Positions 11,103 through 21,828 of a stretch of DNA of 64,000 nt are shown here, one piece after another. The notes under the pieces were generated by a model. It was given only the letters and a program-made list of their open reading frames with translations. It had not been told where the DNA came from and did no database searches. This DNA is from Bacillus sp. EAC (GTDB lineage: Bacteria > Bacillota > Bacilli > Bacillales > Bacillaceae_G): the NCBI RefSeq assembly GCF_002156875.1, contig NZ_NCSY01000001.1, forward strand, positions 558,001-622,000. The letters run 5' to 3'. The translations under genes were made by a program, and so were the position numbers. Each line of letters starts with the position of its first letter. Positions within the stretch are counted from its first letter, which is position 1.

Positions 11103-11276
11103 TTATTGTAAATCACGATATTTTTCAACTAAAACAGGTTGAAGCTGCTTTCCTTCAATTGAAGCATATACTGTCTCTAATAAAGACTCCATTCTAGCTA
11201 CCAATGAATTAGGCTTTTTAATTGGATCATCTTGGCCAAATGGAATAAAATAAATATTTTTTGTACTCATTAAACG
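11103..11276 (-). CDS. dpaB: dipicolinate synthase subunit B, C-terminal part (dpaB exon 2)
   Basis: The last 57 codons of spoVFB/dpaB, cut from the first 142 codons (20504-20929) by the inserted element. The piece reads RLMSTKNIYFIPFGQDDP and ends VLVEKYRDLQ, matching the C-terminus I recall for B. subtilis SpoVFB. The open frame continues upstream into the element (ATG at 11342, weak AAAAGGAT site), adding 22 unrelated residues, so a fusion peptide could be made in the unexcised state. Joining at the core, both halves read TTA ATG in the same frame, giving 199 codons (B. subtilis about 200). No homing or frameshift damage is seen. Confidence 0.93.
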   Translation of the reverse strand, partial: RLMSTKNIYFIPFGQDDPIKKPNSLVARMESLLETVYASIEGKQLQPVLVEKYRDLQ

Positions 11277-11305
11277 CATTAAAATGTGGCTTAGAGGATA
11301 ATACC
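11262..11305. other. left attachment site of the element
   Basis: The junction of dpaB exon 2 (11262-11280) with the element's left arm (11283-11305). The likely central dinucleotide is AA at 11281-11282. The arm begins AATGTGGCTTAGAGG and is the inverted counterpart of the right arm. Confidence 0.85.
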
Positions 11306-11400
11306 TAATGTCGAGCTCTAGGCTGTTTTTTTTATTTATCATAGTTGATCCTTTTAAAAGGCAGTATTCGTAAACTTTGTTGCAATTATAAAAGTTATTC

Positions 11401-11515
11401 GTCGATTTCAGCTTCAGAATGCTCCTTTTTTAGTGCGGCGTACGATGAGCCTCCTTGGTTCGCCTGCTTAGGTCTCACTTCCTTTGCTACTCCCACAGGT
11501 ATCTCGCACTTTACC
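11401..11515. repeat. degenerate Bacillaceae interspersed repeat
   Basis: The plus strand shows CGATTTCAGCTTC, then GATGAGCCTCCTTGG, GGTCTCAC, CTACTCCCACAGG and TCTCGCA, in the order of a widespread Bacillaceae intergenic repeat (TTGATTTCCGCT... GAGCCTCCTC... CTCCCGCAGGAGTCTCGC). I recognise it from memory. The copy is decayed and its function is unknown. Confidence 0.55.
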
Positions 11516-11576
11516 AATTCACTTCTTTATTTACAGTTTGTTTTAAAAACAGCAATCTTTTAGAAAAAAGCTTATT

Positions 11577-11610
11577 AAAAAAGGACCCTCTCAAGGAAAA
11601 GGACCTTTTT
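11577..11610. terminator. imperfect hairpin, possible terminator
   Basis: AAAAAGGACC and GGACCTTTTT pair with one A-A mismatch around a 14-nt loop. A-rich before and T-rich after on both strands, so it could work in either direction. Confidence 0.4.
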
Positions 11611-11736
11611 AAATTTATCTATTCAACGAGCATGTTTAGCATTATTTTACATTTCCCTTAATTACAATCCAAACTAATAAGTATAACAATCACTCTATAA
11701 ACCTATTTTTTGTTCAAAGATAGAGAGGTTAAACAA

Positions 11737-11829
11737 ATGCAGGTTATTTTAAGGGGCTTCCTAATATTAAGTATAACTTTTATGTGTGTAAGAGGAAAAG
11801 ATTACTGGACATATAATAGAAGTAAATGA
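11737..11829 (+). CDS. possible 30-residue hydrophobic peptide
   Basis: ATG at 11737 has AGAGAGG eight bases upstream. The frame encodes a peptide beginning MQVILRGFLILSITFMC with a short hydrophobic stretch and a basic, aromatic tail ending NRSK. It is unrecognised. It is the only plus-strand frame here with a good ribosome binding site. It may be a chance frame. Confidence 0.25.
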   Translation: MQVILRGFLILSITFMCVRGKDYWTYNRSK

Positions 11830-11850
11830 ACTTTTTAAATTACTACAAGT

Positions 11851-12393
11851 CTATTCAAAAAATACGGCATTTTGTAAATGAAATGAATACACTCGATTTA
11901 ATTGGTTTTTAATACATGAATCGAAAAATGCTTGTTTATAGTCCTTGAATAACACTTTAATAAATTGATTTCGCAAATCTTTTATACTCATATTATGGAT
12001 GCTTAAATATTTTTCTGTCCAAAAATTCATATTAGCTGAAAATGTCTCGTCATCTATTTGAAAAAACGAACGTAATGCTTTTACACCTGAATTACCAAGC
12101 AATATAGTAACATCATCAACATCAACATGATCATCTAGTTCGAATACTACGATTTGTTCACTATTAGGTCTTTTTATTACGTTATTCCCTTCTGAATAGC
12201 CTATAAGTCTTCCATTTGATAGATCTAGGGCAACAACTCCTTTTTCCAGATCTAGTGACCAATGCATATAGGCCAACTTAATAACTTCCCGTATGTTCAA
12301 ATGATTTATAATCCGTTCTGCATGAAATCGATCAATGATTTCGATTTTCTCATTAGCTTTATTTTTTTCAAAATTTGTTATAATGGCCAACAT
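11851..12393 (-). CDS. unrecognised protein, about 180 residues
   Basis: I do not recognise this protein. It is acidic and soluble, without signal peptide or membrane segment. It has segments such as FHAERIINHLNIREVIKLAY, an acidic VFELDDHVDVDDVTILLG and WTEKYLSIHNMSIKDLRNQF. The start is unclear: ATG at 12393 directly abuts GGAAAGGG, and TTG codons at 12411 and 12390 are alternatives. It lies between the left end and the WxL operon, separated from the operon by a strong terminator, so it is probably transcribed alone. Regulatory or element-maintenance roles are possible but unsupported. Confidence 0.6.
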   Translation of the reverse strand: MLAIITNFEKNKANEKIEIIDRFHAERIINHLNIREVIKLAYMHWSLDLEKGVVALDLSNGRLIGYSEGNNVIKRPNSEQIVVFELDDHVDVDDVTILLGNSGVKALRSFFQIDDETFSANMNFWTEKYLSIHNMSIKDLRNQFIKVLFKDYKQAFFDSCIKNQLNRVYSFHLQNAVFFE

Positions 12394-12446
12394 CCCTTTC
12401 CATAAAATCAAAAAATACCACTATCACCATAGATATTAAAGGTCTT

Positions 12447-12490
12447 CAAAAAAAATGACAGATTTCCTAAAAAGGAACCTGCCATTTTTA
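12447..12490 (-). terminator. terminator of the WxL operon
   Basis: AAAAATGGCAGGTTCC pairs imperfectly with AGGAAATCTGTCATTTTT on the minus strand and is followed by a T run, about 50 bp after the stop of the long WxL gene. Confidence 0.75.
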
Positions 12491-12541
12491 CTTTTGTGAT
12501 TTTTTTAAAGAAATAAAGTCTCGCGCATTAACTAAATGTCG

Positions 12542-14911
12542 TCATGGAGCATTAGTAAGTGTCCAGTTAATAGTCGTTTTATAAGATTCTGAATAGACAT
12601 CCACAAAACTAGTTTTCACAAGAATTCCTTGATTACTTGTCCAATTAATATCAGTAATCGGATCTGCTCCTGTTGTATGCTCAAATACCTTTAATTCATT
12701 TTGATTTAATGGTATCGAATCGCCATCTTTATTTACATATACTAATGCATTAAGCATTTTATGTGATGGATTACTAGTCGATGTTAAAGGTTCGTCAATT
12801 GATGCCGTGATCATCCAATTACAACCTATTCCTCTTGAATCTAAAACGGACATTTTCCAATTCTCTTCATCTCTTTGGATGAAAGTTTGTAACGAAGAAA
12901 TGGTAGTCGTTTTGAAATTAACTGAACTAGGAATTGTATTAAATGTTAATATTGGGTTAAATGATGTTTCTTTCGATACGATTGTTTTTGTTGCTTTATA
13001 AAAATAAGCGTCATGGAAGATTGTATCAGTTTCAGGATTTTTATTATTATTCTGATCAGTTAAAAATATTTGAACTACATCCCCATCATGTAATGCTGAA
13101 TGCAAAGGAATCTCCCACTTCCCATCAGTTCCTACTACTATTGATTCCCTTAAATTGATTTCTTTTCCATTTACAGTAACAGTTACTATTGCTCCAGGTT
13201 CATCACTTGTTCCAAATATATATTTGCTTACTATTGATACAGGTTCATTTACAAAGGCAGGAGTGGGCGGTGTTCTATCATTTACAGTGATTGTTTGTAT
13301 TACTTTTGTTGGATTTGACCACCGTGAGCCAGTAACAGTGAATATAGATTGTTCATTATAATACTTCTCTAAATTGATATTAAAATTTCCATTCTGATCA
13401 GTTCTATCAATCCATGTTTGATTATCTTGGTTATTTGAAACCGTCAATTCAACTTGCCCTTGCAACGCTTTGAGACCATCAACAAATACTTTTCCTGTAA
13501 GTTTTTTATCTGCGTTAGTGACTTCATTAAGTGTTATAACGATTAGTGAGTTAGTTGCTGAAATTCGAGAAAAAGTTTTCCCTTTAAAATAAGCCAAAAT
13601 ACTAGGTTCACTTGCAGAAATTGGTAAACCATTTACATCAGATAGTAAACTAGCATTATACCAACTAAATGCTGATGCTTTTTCTAGGTCCAATCCTTTT
13701 GTCCATACATTCAGATCTGACTTTATGATCTCAAACGAAGCACCTAGACCGACCTGTACGGCGTATCCGTTAGAACTTGCCAAATTATTGCTATTACAAA
13801 TATCAAATTTTGCTGGTTTTGTTAGTACTAGTTTTGATCCTGGAGTGGATAAACTAATTAACGGGGATGTACTATTTCCCTCAACCAAAAAGTTAGATCC
13901 TTCTTGTGCATTAATTGAGATATTTTTAGCAAAAGGACGTCTTGCATCAATACCTACAATGTTAGTACTAGAGCTTAAGCTTGTCGCTCGGAATGTCGCG
14001 CCTCGTTCGACATTTAAAGACGAATTATCTTGATGGAACGCAACTGTTACTCCGTGTTTTTCAACATTTAACGATCCACCAGGAGCAATATTGATTGAGT
14101 CGTAATATTGAAAAATAGCCGGATAAGTTGCACCATTCGATGTTCCCTTTAAATTTACTGTAGCACCCTCTCCGATATTAAATTGGTGACTTGTCCTCCC
14201 TGTTGAACTCGCTCCGTCTTGAAACCAAATAATTGAATAGTCGTAAAAACTTATTACACCTTCATAATTAGTGTTGGGAAGGAATGTCACCCCTCCTGCA
14301 TAGACGTTTTCAGCTCTCATATTAATTTTATTCGTTCCACCAAAGGTAATATTACTTCTTGAGGCTCTTGCTAGACGTTGCATATTCGTATTTGTCGTTA
14401 TATTTGAAAAGGAGAGCGACCAATATTCACTTTTTGGATCATTATAATAAGTATTAACAAATGCAGCAGCCACAGTATTGATTAGATTTGCATCAAATAG
14501 TTTAAAGTAATATGGTGTGGAATTTGTTATGTTCTGGAGACGTATCCAACTTGTATTTAAATTAATGGTTTTGTTATTTCCATAAATCGTAACATTATGG
14601 CCGGGTACAACGATTTCAGTCCCTGAAGGAGCGTCAGTAATATCTTTTATGATATTGATTTCATCCACTAATTCATTTCGAAGTGCATCTCTAAATTCAG
14701 CAAAAGTTGAAACATTAACCAAAGCGGAATTAGTTAAAGTATGCTTCGGAATGGTAGTACTTTCTTCAGTATTTTTAAAAGTAGGATTAGGTGTTTCCCA
14801 ATTAGGCAATTCATTTTCATGCATTGCAGCAAGTGATTGATTACCAATTAAGCTAATCAAACTAATTACTAATAAAAAAACTATCACTATTTTTTTAAAA
14901 CAACAGATCAA
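12542..14911 (-). CDS. long WxL-domain surface protein with pectate-lyase-like region
   Basis: A secreted cell-wall protein of about 789 residues. The order is: N-terminal signal peptide (hydrophobic FFLLVISLISLIG-like run), a parallel beta-helix or pectate-lyase-like adhesive region in about residues 50-430 (VDEINIIKDITDAPSGTEIVV, many Asn-rich repeats), two bacterial Ig-like domains, and a C-terminal WxL domain with motifs CNWMITAS and TINWTLTNAP. WxL domains bind peptidoglycan non-covalently. The start is probably TTG at 14911 because GGAGGT lies six bases upstream; the in-frame ATG at 14938 lacks one. It is the last gene of the WxL operon and corresponds to the long WxL protein of Enterococcus-type loci. 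Target unknown. Confidence 0.88.
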   Translation of the reverse strand: MICCFKKIVIVFLLVISLISLIGNQSLAAMHENELPNWETPNPTFKNTEESTTIPKHTLTNSALVNVSTFAEFRDALRNELVDEINIIKDITDAPSGTEIVVPGHNVTIYGNNKTINLNTSWIRLQNITNSTPYYFKLFDANLINTVAAAFVNTYYNDPKSEYWSLSFSNITTNTNMQRLARASRSNITFGGTNKINMRAENVYAGGVTFLPNTNYEGVISFYDYSIIWFQDGASSTGRTSHQFNIGEGATVNLKGTSNGATYPAIFQYYDSINIAPGGSLNVEKHGVTVAFHQDNSSLNVERGATFRATSLSSSTNIVGIDARRPFAKNISINAQEGSNFLVEGNSTSPLISLSTPGSKLVLTKPAKFDICNSNNLASSNGYAVQVGLGASFEIIKSDLNVWTKGLDLEKASAFSWYNASLLSDVNGLPISASEPSILAYFKGKTFSRISATNSLIVITLNEVTNADKKLTGKVFVDGLKALQGQVELTVSNNQDNQTWIDRTDQNGNFNINLEKYYNEQSIFTVTGSRWSNPTKVIQTITVNDRTPPTPAFVNEPVSIVSKYIFGTSDEPGAIVTVTVNGKEINLRESIVVGTDGKWEIPLHSALHDGDVVQIFLTDQNNNKNPETDTIFHDAYFYKATKTIVSKETSFNPILTFNTIPSSVNFKTTTISSLQTFIQRDEENWKMSVLDSRGIGCNWMITASIDEPLTSTSNPSHKMLNALVYVNKDGDSIPLNQNELKVFEHTTGADPITDINWTSNQGILVKTSFVDVYSESYKTTINWTLTNAP

Positions 14912-14952
14912 ATTGCGACCTCCAATACTTAAATTCATATTAATGTATGCTC

Positions 14953-15969
14953 TTAAATGTTTCTCTTTTTACCAATGAATAACAAATAAATTACACCGAT
15001 TAATAGTAAAGCACCACTAATATATAGCCAAAAGTGATTTTTATTAATCTCTACAGCCTTGTTATTTAATTCTTTTGTTTCTTTACCAATTGTAAAGGCT
15101 TCATCCCATTCCCAAACTTGAGTTCCTACAATTGCTTTCATTTTTAAACGATACTTTCCAAGTTTAAACTGATCATTATTTAGATCAATTGCATAATTAA
15201 AATTAGAATTAGGTGCCATATTTAATCCATCTCGGTATGAACTATATAACACTTTATTTGAACCATTTTGATAGATTTCGGCTTCTACACTCATTTTTTC
15301 AATAATTACAGCTTCACTATTTTGGATATTGGCAGCAATTGCTGTGTGGAAATTAACTAATTTAGGCTGGATACGAAGTAAATGTAATTCTGGATACAAT
15401 TCCTTCAATGTTTCTGTTAATTTAATACCTACTACATAGGCATAGTGATTTTTTATTTGAATACTTTCCGAAGTTGATTTAAATTCCCTTTCATCTAACT
15501 TCTTTTTAAAGTGAAACGCTCCTAATAGAACTCCTTCATATTTTTCTTTAGGCATTGTTATGGTAAAACTGACTACTTTTGATTTACCTGCAGGAATAAC
15601 AATTTCTTTATGTGGTTTTTTTACAAGGCTTGGTAATGGAGACTTTAAACTTTTATCTGCATTTTTGTAATTCGTTTCTGAATAATCAATTAAACCATTA
15701 TCATTTGTAGTAGCAAATGTTAGATTAGCTTCAATCGTTTCTTCTTCTTTACTATGATTGAACACTTCAATTTCTAAATCCTGTACTTGTCCAGGGTACA
15801 TTTTTATATCAAAATAAGATTTTAAGTGATTTATTTGATTTGTAGGAATTTTCGCTCGAACCGAAAAGTCTACCTCATTTGATGAAGCTTTTACTGATAA
15901 AGGGATAATTGACAAAGTTAACATTATTGCGGATAAGATTAACAATACGATTTGACGTTTACTATTCAT
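14953..15969 (-). CDS. WxL-interacting membrane protein (DUF916/DUF3324)
   Basis: A 338-residue extracellular protein with a signal peptide (MNSKRQIVLLILSAIML), a DUF916 domain (now called a WxL peptidoglycan-binding domain), a DUF3324 domain, a C-terminal transmembrane helix (FWLYISGALLLIGVIYLLFI) and a basic tail GKKRNI. In known loci this protein partners WxL proteins at the cell surface. AAAGGGG precedes the ATG. The stop is 41 bp from the TTG of the long WxL gene. It is the middle gene of the operon. Confidence 0.9.
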   Translation of the reverse strand: MNSKRQIVLLILSAIMLTLSIIPLSVKASSNEVDFSVRAKIPTNQINHLKSYFDIKMYPGQVQDLEIEVFNHSKEEETIEANLTFATTNDNGLIDYSETNYKNADKSLKSPLPSLVKKPHKEIVIPAGKSKVVSFTITMPKEKYEGVLLGAFHFKKKLDEREFKSTSESIQIKNHYAYVVGIKLTETLKELYPELHLLRIQPKLVNFHTAIAANIQNSEAVIIEKMSVEAEIYQNGSNKVLYSSYRDGLNMAPNSNFNYAIDLNNDQFKLGKYRLKMKAIVGTQVWEWDEAFTIGKETKELNNKAVEINKNHFWLYISGALLLIGVIYLLFIGKKRNI

Positions 15970-16000
15970 TTAATAATCCCCTTTGCATTTTTGTACCTTA

Positions 16001-16045
16001 CTAAAAAGATGGGCCAAATTTGTTAAGAGTAACTATTTATGGCCC
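16001..16045 (-). terminator. hairpin after the short WxL gene
   Basis: GGGCCA and TGGCCC arms, with extra A/T pairing, are followed on the minus strand by ATCTTTTTAG. It could partly terminate or stabilise the message, raising the amount of short WxL protein relative to the two genes below. Confidence 0.5.
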
Positions 16046-16094
16046 TATTTTATGATTTACATTTTGCATTTCTAAATTTAATTAGTCCTTCCCA

Positions 16095-16814
16095 TTAAAC
16101 TCCTGGAGCATCTGTTAATGTCCAAGTAATGGTTGTTTCATGATTTCCAACAGTTGCTGAACCAGCTGGGATAGTTAACGTTACGTTATTATTAAGAGCA
16201 CCATCATTTACGTCAGGGTTAAGTCCTAGCCAACTAGTCAACCATGTACCTAAACCATTTCCAGGTGATGCTGAAACGACAGGTGAAATAGTACTACCAT
16301 CAGTATTTAAAGTTACTGTTTGGGTTGGATTAGGTGAACCACCTAAACTATTCGAAATAACTGAACCATTTTTAAATGTTAAAACTGCTCCAAGCAATGT
16401 TTCATTTGATCCATTTGAAAATTTGCTTGCTTTAGCAGTGACCGTCCATCCCTCACCTGTTCCACGTCGATCAGATACTTGTATAAATGGCTTTTTTGAT
16501 TTAGCGGAATACACTTCTGTTTTATTAGAAATATCGTTCGTTCCAAATTCCACGGATGATACATAATCAAGTGTTAATGAGCCAGTATTTCCTGTTGGTG
16601 GATCAGTTGGATCAGTTGGTTTTGGTGGTAGTAATGGATTCATTGGATCAGTCGGATCTATAGGTGCAACCGGTCCTGTTCCAGCGATAAACGATACTAC
16701 TGCTTTTGAATTACCTTCGGATGGTAATCCATCTGCTGCATAAACTCCTTGCATTGTTCCTGCCAATGTTGCAATTCCTACTAAACTAGCTACTACACTT
16801 TTAGAAAATTTCAT
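16095..16814 (-). CDS. short WxL-domain surface protein
   Basis: A 239-residue secreted protein. The signal peptide (MKFSKSVVASLVGIATLAG...VYAA) is followed by a Pro/Asp/Thr-rich linker (PTDPTDPP repeats, about residues 55-75) and a WxL domain with both motifs, GEGWTVTAKA and TTITWTLTDAP, close to the C-terminus. AAAAGGGAG precedes the ATG. It is the first gene of a three-gene operon. This short WxL, DUF916 protein, long WxL set matches the known minimal WxL locus, in which the proteins form a surface complex. It is divergent from the Mga-type regulator. Confidence 0.93.
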   Translation of the reverse strand: MKFSKSVVASLVGIATLAGTMQGVYAADGLPSEGNSKAVVSFIAGTGPVAPIDPTDPMNPLLPPKPTDPTDPPTGNTGSLTLDYVSSVEFGTNDISNKTEVYSAKSKKPFIQVSDRRGTGEGWTVTAKASKFSNGSNETLLGAVLTFKNGSVISNSLGGSPNPTQTVTLNTDGSTISPVVSASPGNGLGTWLTSWLGLNPDVNDGALNNNVTLTIPAGSATVGNHETTITWTLTDAPGV

Positions 16815-16894
16815 AATTTTTAACTCCCTTTTTTAAATTTGTGGATCACACGATTTATATTTTATCGCTTTAGATCTTGAATTGAATATGCTCT

Positions 16895-16919
16895 TTTTTA
16901 CCTTTGTATTAGGTAAAAA
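16895..16919. promoter_or_regulatory. perfect inverted repeat in the divergent WxL/Mga intergenic region
   Basis: TTTTTACCT and AGGTAAAAA form a perfect 9-bp inverted repeat around TTGTATT, about 80-105 bp upstream of the short WxL start. Weak promoter-like elements (TTCAAT, 16 bp, TAAAAT) follow on the minus strand. It could be the operator of the adjacent regulator; this is inferred from position only. Confidence 0.45.
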
Positions 16920-17083
16920 TAATAATAAACTGTTGAAAATGTTCACATATTGCGAAAAATAGTAATTTGCAATTCGTATTTTCGTGATGTAATTCATAAT
17001 AATTAACTGTATTCCGCTTAAATAATAAGATTTTAAATTAATGAAATAATAGAGAAAAGGACTCCTTTAAGTGGTGATTCTAA

Positions 17084-18532
17084 ATGGATAAATCAAATAA
17101 AAGAAAATTACAAATAATTGATATTTTGACTTCTCATGATAAGTGGTTTAAAACTGAAGATTTAGCGAAGGAATTATCATGCACTGAAAAAACAATAAGA
17201 AATGATTTACAAGCAATCAACATGAATTTACCTGAAGGCTGGGTTATTGAAACAATTAAAGGTAAAGGGATTTATATTAAAAAACCAATAACTGGATCGG
17301 TCAATCAGATTCGCTCTTTGTATATAAAAAATTCTTTAACATTCCAAGCAATCATGTACATTCAATTTAAAAAAATAAAAACGATAAATGAATTAGCGAC
17401 GGTTCTTTATGCTACACAACAAGCAGTTTATAAAATACTAGATGCTGTTGAAGGGTTATTAAAGTCTTATAATTTAAAATTAAAACGCGGACCACTTGAA
17501 ATAGATGGAAGAGAATTTGAAATCCGATTACTTTGTTGTGATATTTTGGATGCACTTTATTCTCATACTAAACACTCAAATGAGAATTGGCCTTTCGAAA
17601 CATTTTCATTCTTTGAGTTAAAAAATATCGTTTCAACTATAACTACAAAACACAAATTATTCCTTTATCCGTTAACGACAAACAAGTATGTTTATTTTCT
17701 TGCAACAATGATTAATCGGATTGAAAAAGAAATTGATCTAGGATTAAATGATAAAACCCTAGTAAGAATTATAGATTCGGAATTCTATAAAGTTTCAAGT
17801 GAAATAAGTGACAAAATAGAAAATCAATTCAGTCTTTCTATTTCTCTAAATGAGAGGATTGCATTTACATTATCAATTTCAAAATTTCCTTATGTTAGTT
17901 TTAACGAAATCGAGAAACAAGAATTCTTAACAATTTTTTATAATAAAAATACACCATATTATGAAGAGCTTTATGATTTAGTAGAAACGCTTGAAAAGAA
18001 TCTTGGTATTCCATTACTTAAAGATGCAGAATTTCTTTATACATTTCAAAATCAATTTAAAAGGTACTCAATCTTAACTTCAATCGAAAAAAAAGCTCCT
18101 TCTTATTCAATTGATCGTTATGTATATAAACACTATCCTGAATTATTTAATCAAGTGACAAATATTTTATTTAACTGGACTAAAAAAAAATCTTATCCTG
18201 AAGTAACAAGTGAAAGTGTTGCGAAAGTAACCTTAAATATCCAAGCATCAAAAATTAATTTATCCATACGGAAAAAAAAGATTTTATTACTAACTAGTAA
18301 TGGACCTGGTGTACATCGTTACATTTCGATGAAACTAAAAAAGGCATTTGGTCATCATATTGATTTTCTTCATACAAATTATGATGACTTTGAGTCGGAA
18401 AAATTAAATAAACTCGACATAGAATTTATTATTGCTGATTTCCAGCTAGAAATTGAAACAATCCATCCAGTCATTATCATTGATCCGATGTTAACTCAAA
18501 GAGATATAAATCAAATATCTCGTTTAATGTAA
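17084..18532 (+). CDS. Mga-type transcriptional regulator
   Basis: A 482-residue regulator with an N-terminal winged helix-turn-helix (about residues 8-65, TEDLAKELSCTEKTIRNDLQ), a second Mga helix-turn-helix (about 85-165, TINELATVLYATQQAVYKIL), a PRD-like helical middle and a C-terminal EIIB-like domain beginning KKKILLLTSNGPGV. The layout resembles Mga, AtxA and similar virulence regulators. Only a weak GTGGTGA site precedes the ATG. It is divergent from the WxL operon, which it probably activates. I cannot tell whether its PRD-like part keeps phosphorylatable histidines. Confidence 0.85.
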   Translation: MDKSNKRKLQIIDILTSHDKWFKTEDLAKELSCTEKTIRNDLQAINMNLPEGWVIETIKGKGIYIKKPITGSVNQIRSLYIKNSLTFQAIMYIQFKKIKTINELATVLYATQQAVYKILDAVEGLLKSYNLKLKRGPLEIDGREFEIRLLCCDILDALYSHTKHSNENWPFETFSFFELKNIVSTITTKHKLFLYPLTTNKYVYFLATMINRIEKEIDLGLNDKTLVRIIDSEFYKVSSEISDKIENQFSLSISLNERIAFTLSISKFPYVSFNEIEKQEFLTIFYNKNTPYYEELYDLVETLEKNLGIPLLKDAEFLYTFQNQFKRYSILTSIEKKAPSYSIDRYVYKHYPELFNQVTNILFNWTKKKSYPEVTSESVAKVTLNIQASKINLSIRKKKILLLTSNGPGVHRYISMKLKKAFGHHIDFLHTNYDDFESEKLNKLDIEFIIADFQLEIETIHPVIIIDPMLTQRDINQISRLM

Positions 18533-18598
18533 TTCTTTTTTAATTGATTTACTTCGAAATAATATACATTTCAATGTATACGTTAGAAATGAGCAAAA

Positions 18599-18627
18599 AA
18601 AAAGACTTCATAATTTGAAGTCTTTTT
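18599..18627. terminator. bidirectional terminator
   Basis: A perfect 12-bp stem (AAAAAGACTTCA and its complement) around TAATT, with A and T runs at either side, lies between the convergent Mga gene (plus) and small gene (minus). Confidence 0.8.
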
Positions 18628-18640
18628 CCGATTTTTCTTA

Positions 18641-18823
18641 TTAATCCTTAAAATGTTCCTCCATTTTTTTTTTCATTTCGTCTCTTATAATCTTCCATCC
18701 AATCGTGTGTATTTCATCTAGTACTTTTTGTTTTATTTCTTCGGTTACATTTTTGGGTGTTATTATATTGACAGTTGTTTTTCCAAAATGATAGGTTGCA
18801 GCAAATTCTGCCTGATTCTCCAA
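18641..18823 (-). CDS. small protein divergent from the recombinase; candidate directionality factor
   Basis: A 60-residue protein reading from TTG at 18823 as M-ENQAEFAATYHFGKTTVNI and ending with a Lys/Glu-rich helix. The TTG is chosen because GGGGGTGGTGA immediately precedes it; the in-frame ATG at 18838 is part of that ribosome binding site. It resembles small conserved proteins I have seen beside serine recombinases in Firmicutes, but I cannot name the family. Being small, charged and divergent from the recombinase, it may be the recombination directionality factor needed for excision. This is inferred. Confidence 0.7.
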   Translation of the reverse strand: MENQAEFAATYHFGKTTVNIITPKNVTEEIKQKVLDEIHTIGWKIIRDEMKKKMEEHFKD

Positions 18824-18973
18824 TATCACCACCCCCATGTTAAATTATATGATTTTCTTACTATAGGACTAACCAAGTAAATATTGTATTTAATTAGTAC
18901 AACCAGAATGTCTAAGTGACAAAAGGCTACTAATATTAAATTTCTGCAAATATATATAATATGAGGTGGTTTT

Positions 18974-20470
18974 ATGGAGAAAATTGCACTATATCTTCGT
19001 AAGAGTCGTGCCGATTTAGATGCAGAAGCTCGTGGTGAAGGGGAAACGCTGTCAAAGCATAAAGAACAGCTCTTAAAATTTGCAAAAGATAAAGACTTAA
19101 ATATTGTGTGTATTCGTCAAGAAATTGCATCCGGCGAATCTTTAGTATATCGACCAGAAATGTTAAAGCTTTTACAAGAAATTGAAGAATTAAAATATGA
19201 TGGTGTTCTTGTCATGGATATGGATCGTCTTGGACGTGGGAATATGAAAGAGCAAGGTATCATTTTGGAGACGTTTAAAACGGCAAAAACAAAAATTATT
19301 ACACCTAGAAAGACATATGATCTCCATGATGAATTTGATGAAGAATATAGTGAGTTTGAGGCATTTATGGCGAGAAAGGAATTAAAAATTATAACAAGGC
19401 GTCTTCAACGAGGTAGAATTTTATCAGTTGAACGTGGAAATTACATCGGGACTTATGCACCTTATGGATATGATTTATTCGAAACAAAAGAATATCGATC
19501 ATTATCGATTAATGAGGAACAGGCTAAAGTTGTTCGATGTATTTTTGAGTGGTATACAAAAGAGTTAATTGGTGCTAATGAAATAGCGAATCGATTAAAT
19601 GAAATGAGTATCCTTTCTTTAACGGGTAAGAAATGGAGTTATCATTCAATTTTAGAAATGATTAAAAATCCAACTTATACAGGCAAAGTAACTTGGAACA
19701 AGAAATCACATGGTGGAATCAGAAAACCTAGACATGAATGGCTTGTAATCGATGGAAAGCACAAAGCCATAATTAATAACGAACTTTTTAGTAAAGCACA
19801 AGATATTTTAAAAAGTAGATATCATGTTCCTTATAACACTAAATTAAGTAATCAACTCGCTGGACTTATTTTTTGCAGTAAGTGTGGTTCAAAATTACAA
19901 CAGCGTTATCCAAAAAATAAACCGAGACAAATCGTTTGTACAAATAATCAATGTAATACTAAATCTTCTTATACTCATTTAATTGAACAAAAACTACTCG
20001 CAGGTTTATCTAATTGGTTGGGAGATTTCAAATTATCGTTTACAAACCAATCAGTTATTGAAGATAATGAAATCATTAAACTTAAAAAACAAGCATTGAA
20101 AAATTTTGAAAATGAATTAAGCGAATCCATTAAACAAAAAACAAAGCTATTTGATTTACTTGAAAGAGGAGTCTATGATGAAAATACCTTCCTAGAAAGA
20201 TCACAAGAGCTTGAAAATCGGATAATTGAACTTAATAGCACAATGCTATCTATCATAGATGAAATTAAAAACTATGAAGAGCATGAACTTGTTAATGCAC
20301 TCATCATACCTAAACTCGAGAGTGTATTAGATTTATATCATCAAACAAGTAATATTGAATTAAAAAATCGTCTGTTAAAGTCCGTACTATATAAAGTTGA
20401 ATACAAAAAGGATCCCAATCAAAAACTCGATGAGTTCCAATTAACTCTATATCCAAAACTCATTAATTAA
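18974..20470 (+). CDS. large serine recombinase
   Basis: A 498-residue site-specific recombinase, about the size of SpoIVCA. The N-terminal resolvase domain has the nucleophile S11 (YLRKSRAD), the ASGESL loop and DMDRLGRGNMKEQG. A recombinase domain follows from about 165 (GTYAPYGYDL). The zinc ribbon has two cysteine pairs (CSKCGSKLQQ and CTNNQCNTKS), then a long coiled coil at about 360-440. GAGGTGG precedes the ATG. The gene ends 14 bp before the right attachment arm. It should catalyse both integration at dpaB and, with a partner, excision. Its sequence differs from B. subtilis SpoIVCA as I recall it. Confidence 0.95.
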   Translation: MEKIALYLRKSRADLDAEARGEGETLSKHKEQLLKFAKDKDLNIVCIRQEIASGESLVYRPEMLKLLQEIEELKYDGVLVMDMDRLGRGNMKEQGIILETFKTAKTKIITPRKTYDLHDEFDEEYSEFEAFMARKELKIITRRLQRGRILSVERGNYIGTYAPYGYDLFETKEYRSLSINEEQAKVVRCIFEWYTKELIGANEIANRLNEMSILSLTGKKWSYHSILEMIKNPTYTGKVTWNKKSHGGIRKPRHEWLVIDGKHKAIINNELFSKAQDILKSRYHVPYNTKLSNQLAGLIFCSKCGSKLQQRYPKNKPRQIVCTNNQCNTKSSYTHLIEQKLLAGLSNWLGDFKLSFTNQSVIEDNEIIKLKKQALKNFENELSESIKQKTKLFDLLERGVYDENTFLERSQELENRIIELNSTMLSIIDEIKNYEEHELVNALIIPKLESVLDLYHQTSNIELKNRLLKSVLYKVEYKKDPNQKLDEFQLTLYPKLIN

Positions 20471-20484
20471 TTCGGCTCGGCTCT

Positions 20485-20528
20485 GGTATTACCCTCTTAG
20501 CCACATTAAATTTGTTCCATTTAAACCT
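20485..20528. other. right attachment site of the element
   Basis: The element's right arm (20485-20507, beginning GGTATTACCCTCTTAG) meets dpaB exon 1 at the AA at 20508-20509. With the left arm it would form a 48-bp near-palindromic attP in the excised circle. Confidence 0.85.
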
Positions 20529-20929
20529 AAAGCATCATTTGTCGAAATACCTAATACAATTGGCTTGCCGTTTCTTAATGTTGCTTTTGCTGCCATTAGA
20601 ACTGGACTATCAGTTTGTGCATTTGCAAATTTACTCATCGAATTACCTGTTAATGGTGCGATAACCATACAGTCTAATTGAACTTTAGGCCCAAATGGTT
20701 CTGCCCCAACGATTGAATCAACTGTTTTACGACCAGTGATTTCTTCAATTTTTTCAATCCAGTCTTCACCTACACCAAATCTAGTTGTTGTACTTTTCAC
20801 CGTAAACGTCACGACTGGATAGACATCTGCTCCATCATCAACAAGTTTTTGTATTTGAGGCACGACCTCTTCATACGTACAATGTGATCCTGTTATTCCA
20901 AAACCAATTTTTTTCCCTTTTAAAGTCAT
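20489..20929 (-). CDS. dpaB: dipicolinate synthase subunit B, N-terminal part (dpaB exon 1), truncated by the element
   Basis: DpaB is the flavoprotein-like subunit that, with DpaA, makes dipicolinic acid for the spore core. This piece has 146 codons. The first 142 are genuine (MTLKGKKIGFGITGSHCTYE, VIAPLTGNSMSKFANA, LGISTNDALGLNGTNLM). The last four, WLRG, and the stop come from the element. The missing 57 residues are at 11103-11276. AAGGAG lies eight bases before the ATG, which overlaps the dpaA stop as ATGA. Without excision the product would lack its C-terminal quarter and is probably inactive. Confidence 0.95.
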   Translation of the reverse strand: MTLKGKKIGFGITGSHCTYEEVVPQIQKLVDDGADVYPVVTFTVKSTTTRFGVGEDWIEKIEEITGRKTVDSIVGAEPFGPKVQLDCMVIAPLTGNSMSKFANAQTDSPVLMAAKATLRNGKPIVLGISTNDALGLNGTNLMWLRG

Positions 20930-21828
20930 TTCGGTTGCTCCTTTCTTTTATCTAATTCTTCCTTTAGAAGTTGCGTTAGTACATTGGCAATAATTTGACC
21001 AGCCGTTTTAGGAGCAACTATTCCTGGTAATCCTGGTGCTAATAATGCTTTTATACCTCTCTTTTCAGCATAACGAAAATCCGTTCCACCAGGTTTTGAT
21101 GCTAAATCAATTATAAGTGCATGTGATTGTAATTTCGAGATTACACTTGCAGTAACGATAAGAGTTGGAACTGTGTTAATGACAACATCAACATCTTTTA
21201 AAGCATCTTCAATATTCTTAAATTCAAATGCTTCAACACCCATCTCTACAATACGAGCGATATGTTCTGATCTACGAGCCCCTACTTTTACTTTTGCACC
21301 TAAATTATGAAATGTTCGAGCAACACTCATACCGGTGCGACCTAATCCTAGTACTGCAACTTTGGAATTATGAATCGTGTATTCCGTATGTTGAATAACC
21401 ATCATGATTGTTCCCTCAACAGTTGGAATACTGTTATAAATCGCTACATCATCTCTTTCAAACAACTTAACTAACTTTCGATTTGATGCTGCAATGATTC
21501 CATCCAAGTAAGAATTACTAATTCCAGAGTAGATTATACAATGTTCTGGTGTTCTTTCTAATAATTCTTTCGTCAAAACGACTTTTTCGTTTGAAAATAT
21601 TGTATCGACGACTCCTTCATTATTTGTCCCTGGAACTGGTAATAAAATCGCATCCAGTTCTTCAAAACTTGCATCTGCAATTAATTCTTTTGATGCGCTT
21701 GTGAAACCACTATCTAATTGTTCAAAACCAATTAATGTTACTTTAGCATCTAACTCTGTTAACTTACGAATAACTTCCAGCTGTCTGGCATCCCCACCGA
21801 TCACAGCTATATGCAAGCCAGTTAACAT
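20926..21828 (-). CDS. dpaA: dipicolinate synthase subunit A
   Basis: The NAD(P)-binding subunit of dipicolinate synthase, which oxidises the DapA product to dipicolinic acid in the mother cell. It has 300 residues and is intact (B. subtilis SpoVFA 297). There are two Rossmann-like parts: MLTGLHIAVIGGDARQLEVI at 1-20 and VAVLGLGRTGMSVARTFHNL near 158-177. AAGGTGA precedes the ATG. It overlaps dpaB by 4 nt. A sigma-K promoter lies about 85 bp upstream. Confidence 0.96.
   Translation of the reverse strand: MLTGLHIAVIGGDARQLEVIRKLTELDAKVTLIGFEQLDSGFTSASKELIADASFEELDAILLPVPGTNNEGVVDTIFSNEKVVLTKELLERTPEHCIIYSGISNSYLDGIIAASNRKLVKLFERDDVAIYNSIPTVEGTIMMVIQHTEYTIHNSKVAVLGLGRTGMSVARTFHNLGAKVKVGARRSEHIARIVEMGVEAFEFKNIEDALKDVDVVINTVPTLIVTASVISKLQSHALIIDLASKPGGTDFRYAEKRGIKALLAPGLPGIVAPKTAGQIIANVLTQLLKEELDKRKEQPK

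What the first reader, a model, noticed from the sequence alone, without database searches (positions are those of the whole stretch)
11103..20929. dpaB (spoVFB) is split by a 9.23-kb skin-like element that should be excised in sporulation
Seen: the first 142 codons of dpaB are at 20504-20929 and the last 57 codons at 11103-11276. Both stop at a shared core TTTAATG, in the same reading frame, so exact removal gives a 199-codon gene, the usual length. A serine recombinase sits at the inner right end. Known: sigK in B. subtilis is rebuilt the same way by excision of skin, and I recall a spoVFB-interrupting element (vfbin) in B. weihenstephanensis. Inference: excision in the mother cell is needed for dipicolinic acid and full spore resistance. 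The clean fragments argue for a maintained, reversible interruption, not a dead gene.
Basis: partly seen in the sequence, partly recalled or inferred. Interest (0 to 1): 0.95.

Follow-up and report, generated by a model that had tools for sequence, protein, structure and literature searches.

The report
Removable DNA insert splits spore gene
In this soil bacterium and most of its sequenced relatives, a gene for the spore's heat-protecting chemical is cut in two by a small mobile piece of DNA that probably removes itself while a spore is being made; here that piece also carries a set of cell-surface genes.

Summary
Confirmed. In a Gottfriedia genome dpaB (spoVFB) is split in frame after codon 142 by a 9,227-bp element (11277-20503) bounded by TTTAATG, with a large serine recombinase at one end; no second dpaB was found. 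The same split with an orthologous recombinase (75-77% identical) occurs in 10 of the 12 other genomes of the genus held; two have intact dpaB and no such recombinase. In nine relatives the element is only 2.8-3.0 kb: recombinase, a 59-61-aa protein (candidate directionality factor) and an unknown 178-197-aa protein. The window's copy is larger because about 6.2 kb, a WxL surface-protein operon with an Mga-like regulator, was added. Both dpaB halves are constrained like dpaA, and the recombinase is constrained too. The element ends form the inverted repeat expected of a serine-integrase attP. Recombinase relatives outside the genus sit mainly in sigK or a cotJC-like gene (15 of 19 loci). Excision during sporulation is inferred, not shown. 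An element in this gene is already known (vfbin); new are the genus-wide three-gene form, the surface-gene cargo and the sigK/cotJC link.

The parts
20926..21828 (-). dpaA (spoVFA), intact, 300 aa
   Evidence: DpaA_N Pfam 4.7e-36
20504..20929 (-). dpaB 5' fragment, codons 1-142 (open frame runs to 20489, 4 more codons)
20504..20510 (-). core TTTAATG at the 5'-fragment junction
20485..20503 (.). element end, attP-type arm (inverted match of 11287-11305)
11277..20503 (.). intervening element, 9,227 bp counted with one core copy
18974..20470 (+). large serine recombinase, 498 aa
18641..18838 (-). small protein, 65 aa as listed, candidate directionality factor; the start may be a TTG about 15 nt further in, after GGGGGTGGTG (my reading)
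18844..18851 (-). CATATAAT box upstream of the small gene, conserved as CATAYAAT in 11 of 11; sigma-E-like -10, but frequency in the window is at chance
12466..18664 (.). added cargo: no similarity to the small elements of three relatives over this stretch
17084..18532 (+). Mga-like regulator (AcpB/EbpR/MafR family), 482 aa
16095..16814 (-). WxL surface protein, 239 aa
14953..15969 (-). WxL-interacting protein, 338 aa
12542..14938 (-). putative adhesin, 798 aa (pectate-lyase-like adhesive and Ig-like domains)
11851..12411 (-). 186-aa protein of unknown function, kept in all 11 elements (178-197 aa in relatives)
11287..11305 (.). element end, attP-type arm
11277..11283 (-). core TTTAATG at the 3'-fragment junction
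11103..11276 (-). dpaB 3' fragment, codons 143-199 and stop

Best explanation
A non-phage gene-intervening element. In vegetative cells and in the spore's own chromosome it stays inserted and dpaB is broken. During sporulation, in the mother cell, its serine recombinase with a small partner protein recombines the two TTTAATG-centred sites, releases the element as a circle and rejoins dpaB, so that dipicolinate synthase can be made. Shown: the split, its conservation across the genus, purifying selection on both halves and on the recombinase, and attP-type ends. Inferred: that the small protein is the directionality factor, that excision is confined to the mother cell, and that dipicolinate depends on it. 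In this species the element also holds a WxL surface-protein operon, which by this model would be lost only from the dying mother cell and handed on intact through the spore.
For: Same split and orthologous recombinase in 11 of 13 genomes of the genus, intact gene without that recombinase in the other two. dN/dS among the ten other split genomes: dpaB-5' 0.018, dpaB-3' 0.044, dpaA 0.059, recombinase 0.086, small protein 0.289, third gene 0.217. Inverted arms 17-19 of 21 in 11 of 11 elements, none at 17 or more in 20,000 random pairs, 10 and 9 at the two empty sites. No second dpaB. Related recombinases abut sigK or cotJC-like fragments in 15 of 19 loci, and the small-protein profile matches a small frame in 4 of the 7 sigK loci. 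In G009 the assembly breaks at the left site with ends that fit a mixture of inserted and excised DNA.
Against: No expression or excision data. The sigma-E-like box is no commoner than chance in the window (11 against 10.5) and its -35 region is not canonical. The small protein's role rests on size, position and weak similarity; the profile found nothing in 3 of the 7 sigK loci nor in L095 (only 1.5 kb of flank was held for those three, L117-L119). The window's own 3' fragment has an upstream in-frame ATG at 11342 preceded by AAAGGA, so separate translation is not excluded there.
Confidence: 0.84

Rival explanations
1. An ordinary site-specific mobile element that excises and re-enters at random in growing cells; dpaB is repaired in some cells by chance, without developmental control.
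For: Promoter evidence for mother-cell control is weak. The G009 contig break, if real, suggests excised forms in an ordinary DNA preparation. G001 may have lost the element cleanly.
Against: The element broadly follows the host tree within the ten-species clade; sigK-type and vfbin systems studied elsewhere have sporulation-controlled recombinase or directionality factor (passages of PMC5025042, PMC5595907, PMC6957869).
Confidence: 0.15
2. The two fragments are made separately and assemble into a working split DpaB, so excision is not needed.
For: Both fragments are strongly conserved. In the window an ATG at 11342, in frame with the 3' fragment, has AAAGGA upstream.
Against: No Shine-Dalgarno-like word within 22 nt of the junction ATG in 10 of 10 elements; the tails added upstream differ between species and in G002 and G006 a stop lies 39-45 nt upstream with no other start.
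Confidence: 0.04
3. dpaB is simply dead and the element a stranded remnant.
For: The gene is not contiguous in the assembly, and no excision has been observed.
Against: dN/dS 0.018 and 0.044 for the two halves and 0.086 for the recombinase among ten split genomes; frame and core kept in 11 of 11.
Confidence: 0.03

Closest known systems
vfbin, element in spoVFB of Bacillus weihenstephanensis KBAB4 (Abe et al. 2013, paper not held; known from passages of PMC4191935, PMC5595907 and PMC10747680)
   Same: Same host gene, excised in sporulation there; carries a serine recombinase.
   Different: vfbin is described as carrying phage-related genes (passage of PMC4191935); this element shows none besides the recombinase. 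Its insertion site and recombinase could not be compared.
skin elements in sigK (B. subtilis, C. difficile)
   Same: Serine recombinase at the end facing the 5' gene fragment, small directionality factor (Skr 64 aa, CD1234 72 aa; passages of PMC6957869 and PMC5025042), mother-cell gene. Seven relatives of the window recombinase abut sigK fragments.
   Different: Different host gene; sigK is intact in 13 of 13 genomes of the genus; three-gene form; no phage genes seen. SpoIVCA and CD1231 themselves were not compared.
gin, element in gerE of B. cereus ATCC10987 (PMC5595907: abstract, introduction, discussion and passages seen)
   Same: Non-phage element, serine recombinase plus directionality factor, inverted repeat around a 9-bp core.
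   Different: gin is 28.6 kb with three recombinases; this one has one recombinase, 2.8-3.0 kb in nine relatives and 9.2 kb with a WxL operon in the window.

Membership tests
Sporulation gene-intervening element (skin / vfbin / gin kind) | Splits a sporulation gene so that exact removal restores the reading frame | tested here: met
Sporulation gene-intervening element (skin / vfbin / gin kind) | Encodes its own site-specific recombinase | tested here: met
Sporulation gene-intervening element (skin / vfbin / gin kind) | Short shared core with inverted-repeat attachment site | tested here: met
Sporulation gene-intervening element (skin / vfbin / gin kind) | Small directionality factor | tested here: inconclusive
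   Candidate of 59-65 aa in 11 of 11 elements; profile similarity to small frames in 4 of 7 sigK loci
Sporulation gene-intervening element (skin / vfbin / gin kind) | Excision in the mother cell during sporulation | not testable with these tools
   Only a hint from the G009 contig break
Prophage-like element (skin, vfbin) | Carries phage genes besides the recombinase | tested here: not met
   Pfam on the window proteins; PHROGs on the recombinase, small and unknown proteins only; WxL proteins not run against PHROGs
vfbin | Same insertion site and recombinase as the B. weihenstephanensis element | not tested
   Paper not held; no vfbin sequence fetched

The most novel reading that the evidence does not exclude
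A lineage of serine recombinases is specialised on genes of the terminal mother cell (sigK, a cotJC-like coat gene, dpaB) and behaves like a family of selfish, spore-specific DNA introns. In Gottfriedia it reached a nearly minimal, largely vertically inherited three-gene form, and in this species the site inside dpaB became a cargo island for a surface-protein operon that every germ-line cell keeps and only the dying mother cell discards.
Probability: 0.4. Interest if true: 0.75.

Novelty: new variant of a known kind. Interest (0 to 1): 0.62.

Why it matters
Elements in spore genes are usually described as domesticated prophages in single strains. Here one is spread over a genus, with empty sites, a host tree and a three-gene form that would make a very small natural system for programmed DNA excision; at about 2.8 kb it is smaller than any such element I know of (recall, not a survey). 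The enlarged copy with a WxL operon suggests that such elements can take up ordinary host genes. Recombinase relatives in sigK and a cotJC-like gene make it testable whether preference for mother-cell genes belongs to a recombinase lineage.

Tried and rejected
Dead gene: rejected on dN/dS. Split protein: disfavoured, not excluded. Prophage remnant: not supported. Structure prediction of the 186-aa protein gave mean pLDDT 41.9, so no fold search was made; the second structure job was not used. The sigma-E-like box cannot be claimed as a promoter. The source site of the WxL operon in this genome was not found: LysR neighbours were ambiguous, best 57%, and the neighbouring 658-aa protein of G010 had no match at E 1e-100. 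One gain with a clean loss in G001 and two gains could not be separated: seven host genes make G000 and G001 sisters, while the protein tree of DpaA plus DpaB left G001 unresolved (47-51), and the element of the window is somewhat more diverged than host genes would predict. The order of sigK, DegT and dpaB recombinases in the tree is poorly supported (mostly 37-64). A small frame in L119 that I thought similar to the candidate factor by eye was not found by the profile.
Full report
WHAT IS THERE. The window lies in a 4.33-Mb genome of 28 contigs. On the minus strand dpaA (21828-20926) is followed by the first 142 codons of dpaB (20929-20504); the last 57 codons and stop lie at 11276-11103. 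Both break at TTTAATG. The 9,227 bp between (one core copy) encode, left to right, a 186-aa protein, a 798-aa putative adhesin, a WxL-interacting protein, a WxL protein, a divergent Mga-like regulator, a 65-aa protein and a 498-aa serine recombinase. The own genome has two Flavoprotein-family matches: this fragment, and one with a 424-aa open frame that I take to be CoaBC.

THE SPLIT IS SPREAD OVER THE GENUS. Of 13 genomes held (own included) 11 have the same split; G001 and G004 have an uninterrupted gene. The 11 carry the orthologous recombinase next to the split, the ten others at 75-77% identity; G001 has no match at E 1e-10, and G004 two distant ones elsewhere (35% and 26%). In the nine relatives with the element on one contig it measures 2,778-3,042 bp. 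It holds three genes: recombinase (498-502 aa), a 59-61-aa protein and a 178-197-aa protein. In G009 it is broken over two contigs. Against three small elements, similarity of the window's copy stops at 12465 and resumes at 18665-18687.

SELECTION. Nei-Gojobori dN/dS among the ten other split genomes (45 pairs): dpaA 0.059, dpaB-5' 0.018, dpaB-3' 0.044, recombinase 0.086, small protein 0.289, third gene 0.217. So the halves are held as tightly as the intact neighbour. Comparisons with the window genome have mean dS of 0.8-2.8 and are less reliable. The 3' piece has no Shine-Dalgarno-like word within 22 nt of its junction ATG in 10 of 10 elements examined; but in the window another in-frame ATG (11342) has AAAGGA upstream.

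ATTACHMENT SITES. The element ends carry arms that are inverted matches of each other around the core: 17-19 of 21 positions in 11 of 11 elements (for G009 the left arm comes from its contig end), against at most 16 in 20,000 random window pairs; the empty sites of G001 and G004 give 10 and 9. In the window both arms changed together (GCCA/TGGC where nine of the ten relatives have GTCA/TGAC; G002 has GCCA with TGAC). From general knowledge this is the attP anatomy of large serine integrases.

POSSIBLE TRACE OF EXCISION. In G009 the assembly breaks at the left site. One contig ends at the last bases shared by inserted and empty forms; the other ends TTTAATGTG, as a circle junction would read, not TTTAATGCG. 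That is one base. By my arithmetic on the rounded contig counts (about 1,400 contigs in the 11 genomes), a contig end within 10 bp of either site in any of them has about a 2% chance. It is a hint only.

HISTORY. Seven host genes from nine genomes of the genus (two outgroups in two of three alignments) make the window genome and G001 sisters (support 100, 100, 97), put the six other interrupted genomes sampled in a clade (100 in all three), and leave G004 outside. So there was one gain with a clean loss in G001, or two gains. A DpaA/DpaB protein tree did not resolve G001. In the ten-species clade the element tree broadly follows the host tree (G002 and G008 first), with support 58-76 at those nodes.

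PARTNER PROTEIN AND PROMOTER. A profile of the 11 small proteins matches a small frame in four loci, all sigK-inserted (E 7.8e-10 to 6.7e-5). In L096, L097 and L098 it lies on the element side; in L094 beyond the sigK fragment. Of the 25 loci scanned only these four passed with this profile; a second profile built with them added one weak match (L125, 4.3e-5), and reversed peptides gave none. L117-L119 (sigK, short flanks) and L095 gave none. Skr (64 aa) and CD1234 (72 aa) are known directionality factors of similar size (passages of PMC6957869, PMC5025042). Upstream of the small gene a CATAYAAT box and a GGTTAGTCC block are conserved in 11 of 11. The box resembles the sigma-E -10 element (consensus recalled), but the motif occurs in the window at chance frequency.

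RELATIVES OF THE RECOMBINASE. Two searches, not selected by insertion site, gave 19 loci outside the genus at 39-55% identity (eight, eleven, at E 1e-100 in 398 genomes). A sigK fragment abuts the recombinase in seven: L094, L096, L097, L117, L119, L098 and L118 (L118 has 37 residues at the locus end). A manganese-catalase-family fragment that I call cotJC-like abuts it in eight: L100, L121, L122, L124, L125, L126, L101 and L127. The cotJC name and its mother-cell expression are recalled, not from a call. L095 has a truncated DegT/PseC-type aminotransferase, L120 a truncated PilB, and L099 and L123 are unassigned. In each case I saw one half of the interrupted gene only. L097/L098 and L099/L101 are near-identical pairs, so independent events are fewer. 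The N pieces of the cotJC-like gene end at profile position 66-67 and three of four Pfam-scanned C pieces begin at 67-70, which suggests one site. In the tree the cotJC recombinases (with L099, L123 and L127) form a clade at 100 and the dpaB ones another at 100; order among sigK, DegT and dpaB recombinases is weak. Phage integrases are also in this range: the two nearest phages, THSA-485A and TVCOM_ph1, are 48.9% and 46.8% identical, and their sites were not checked. sigK is intact in 13 of 13 genomes of the genus.

dpaB AS A REPEATED TARGET. In an even sample of 397 genomes of the order 382 had a DpaB match. Ten of the 12 Gottfriedia genomes in it are split. Of the other 370, eleven had two matches; seven of these were checked: G118 and G078 are split near codon 86-89 by about 11 and 21 kb, G199 probably near codon 20 by about 46 kb (its first piece is 21 residues, E 4.6e-4), G050 looks like a frame change, and G139, G190 and G247 have a weak paralogue. 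G215, G341, G360 and G397 were not checked, and single partial matches were not all listed, so this is a lower bound. Eight further proteins of the G118 element gave no phage family in Pfam; one is a transglutaminase.

CARGO. WxL-family matches occur in 12 of 13 genomes (34 in all); the window genome has one, in the element. I fetched seven of the 33 others. They hold wxl and wxlip homologues in seven, the Mga-like gene in six, and the full adhesin in two (57-72% identity), outside dpaB. Five of the seven share neighbours (clusters 3 and 4), G002 shares others, G001 none. So the operon with its regulator was placed in the element as a unit, or came with it; a source site was not found.

PUBLISHED BACKGROUND. 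Elements in spoVFB, sigK, spsM, gerE, spoVR and yabG are reported (passages of PMC4191935, PMC5025042, PMC6957869 and PMC10747680; abstract, two sections and passages of PMC5595907). One passage of PMC11222575 notes a cotJC homologue next to the phi027 prophage of C. difficile. The listings (the larger ones capped) showed no title on such an element in Gottfriedia; other listed papers were not opened, and most subscription papers are not held.

VERDICT. Observation right; interpretation well supported with timing untested; a new variant of a known kind.

Noticed in passing
L100, L101, L121, L122, L124, L125, L126, L127: Recombinases related to the window's abut fragments of a manganese-catalase (cotJC-like) gene, apparently one site; a possible further class of intervening element.
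   Followed up: partly
L104 (G118), L105-L106 (G078), L107-L109 (G199): dpaB split at other positions in three other genera; the G118 and G078 recombinases are close to each other and far from the window's.
   Followed up: partly
L079 start and L080 end (G009): Assembly breaks at the left attachment site, one contig end reading like the circle junction.
   Followed up: partly
L095 11497-12357 and L120 3064-4245: Related recombinases abut a truncated DegT/PseC-type aminotransferase near sugar-nucleotide genes and a truncated pilB.
   Followed up: no
L094 12260-12496: The small-protein homologue lies beyond the sigK fragment, apparently outside the element, unlike in L096-L098.
   Followed up: no
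11268-11283: A second TTTAATG lies 9 bp into the dpaB 3' fragment (Leu-Met-Arg-Leu-Met), so an off-register rejoining would stay in frame.
   Followed up: no
12412-12470: Inverted repeat followed by a T run upstream of the 186-aa gene, conserved in the relatives, terminator-like by eye.
   Followed up: no
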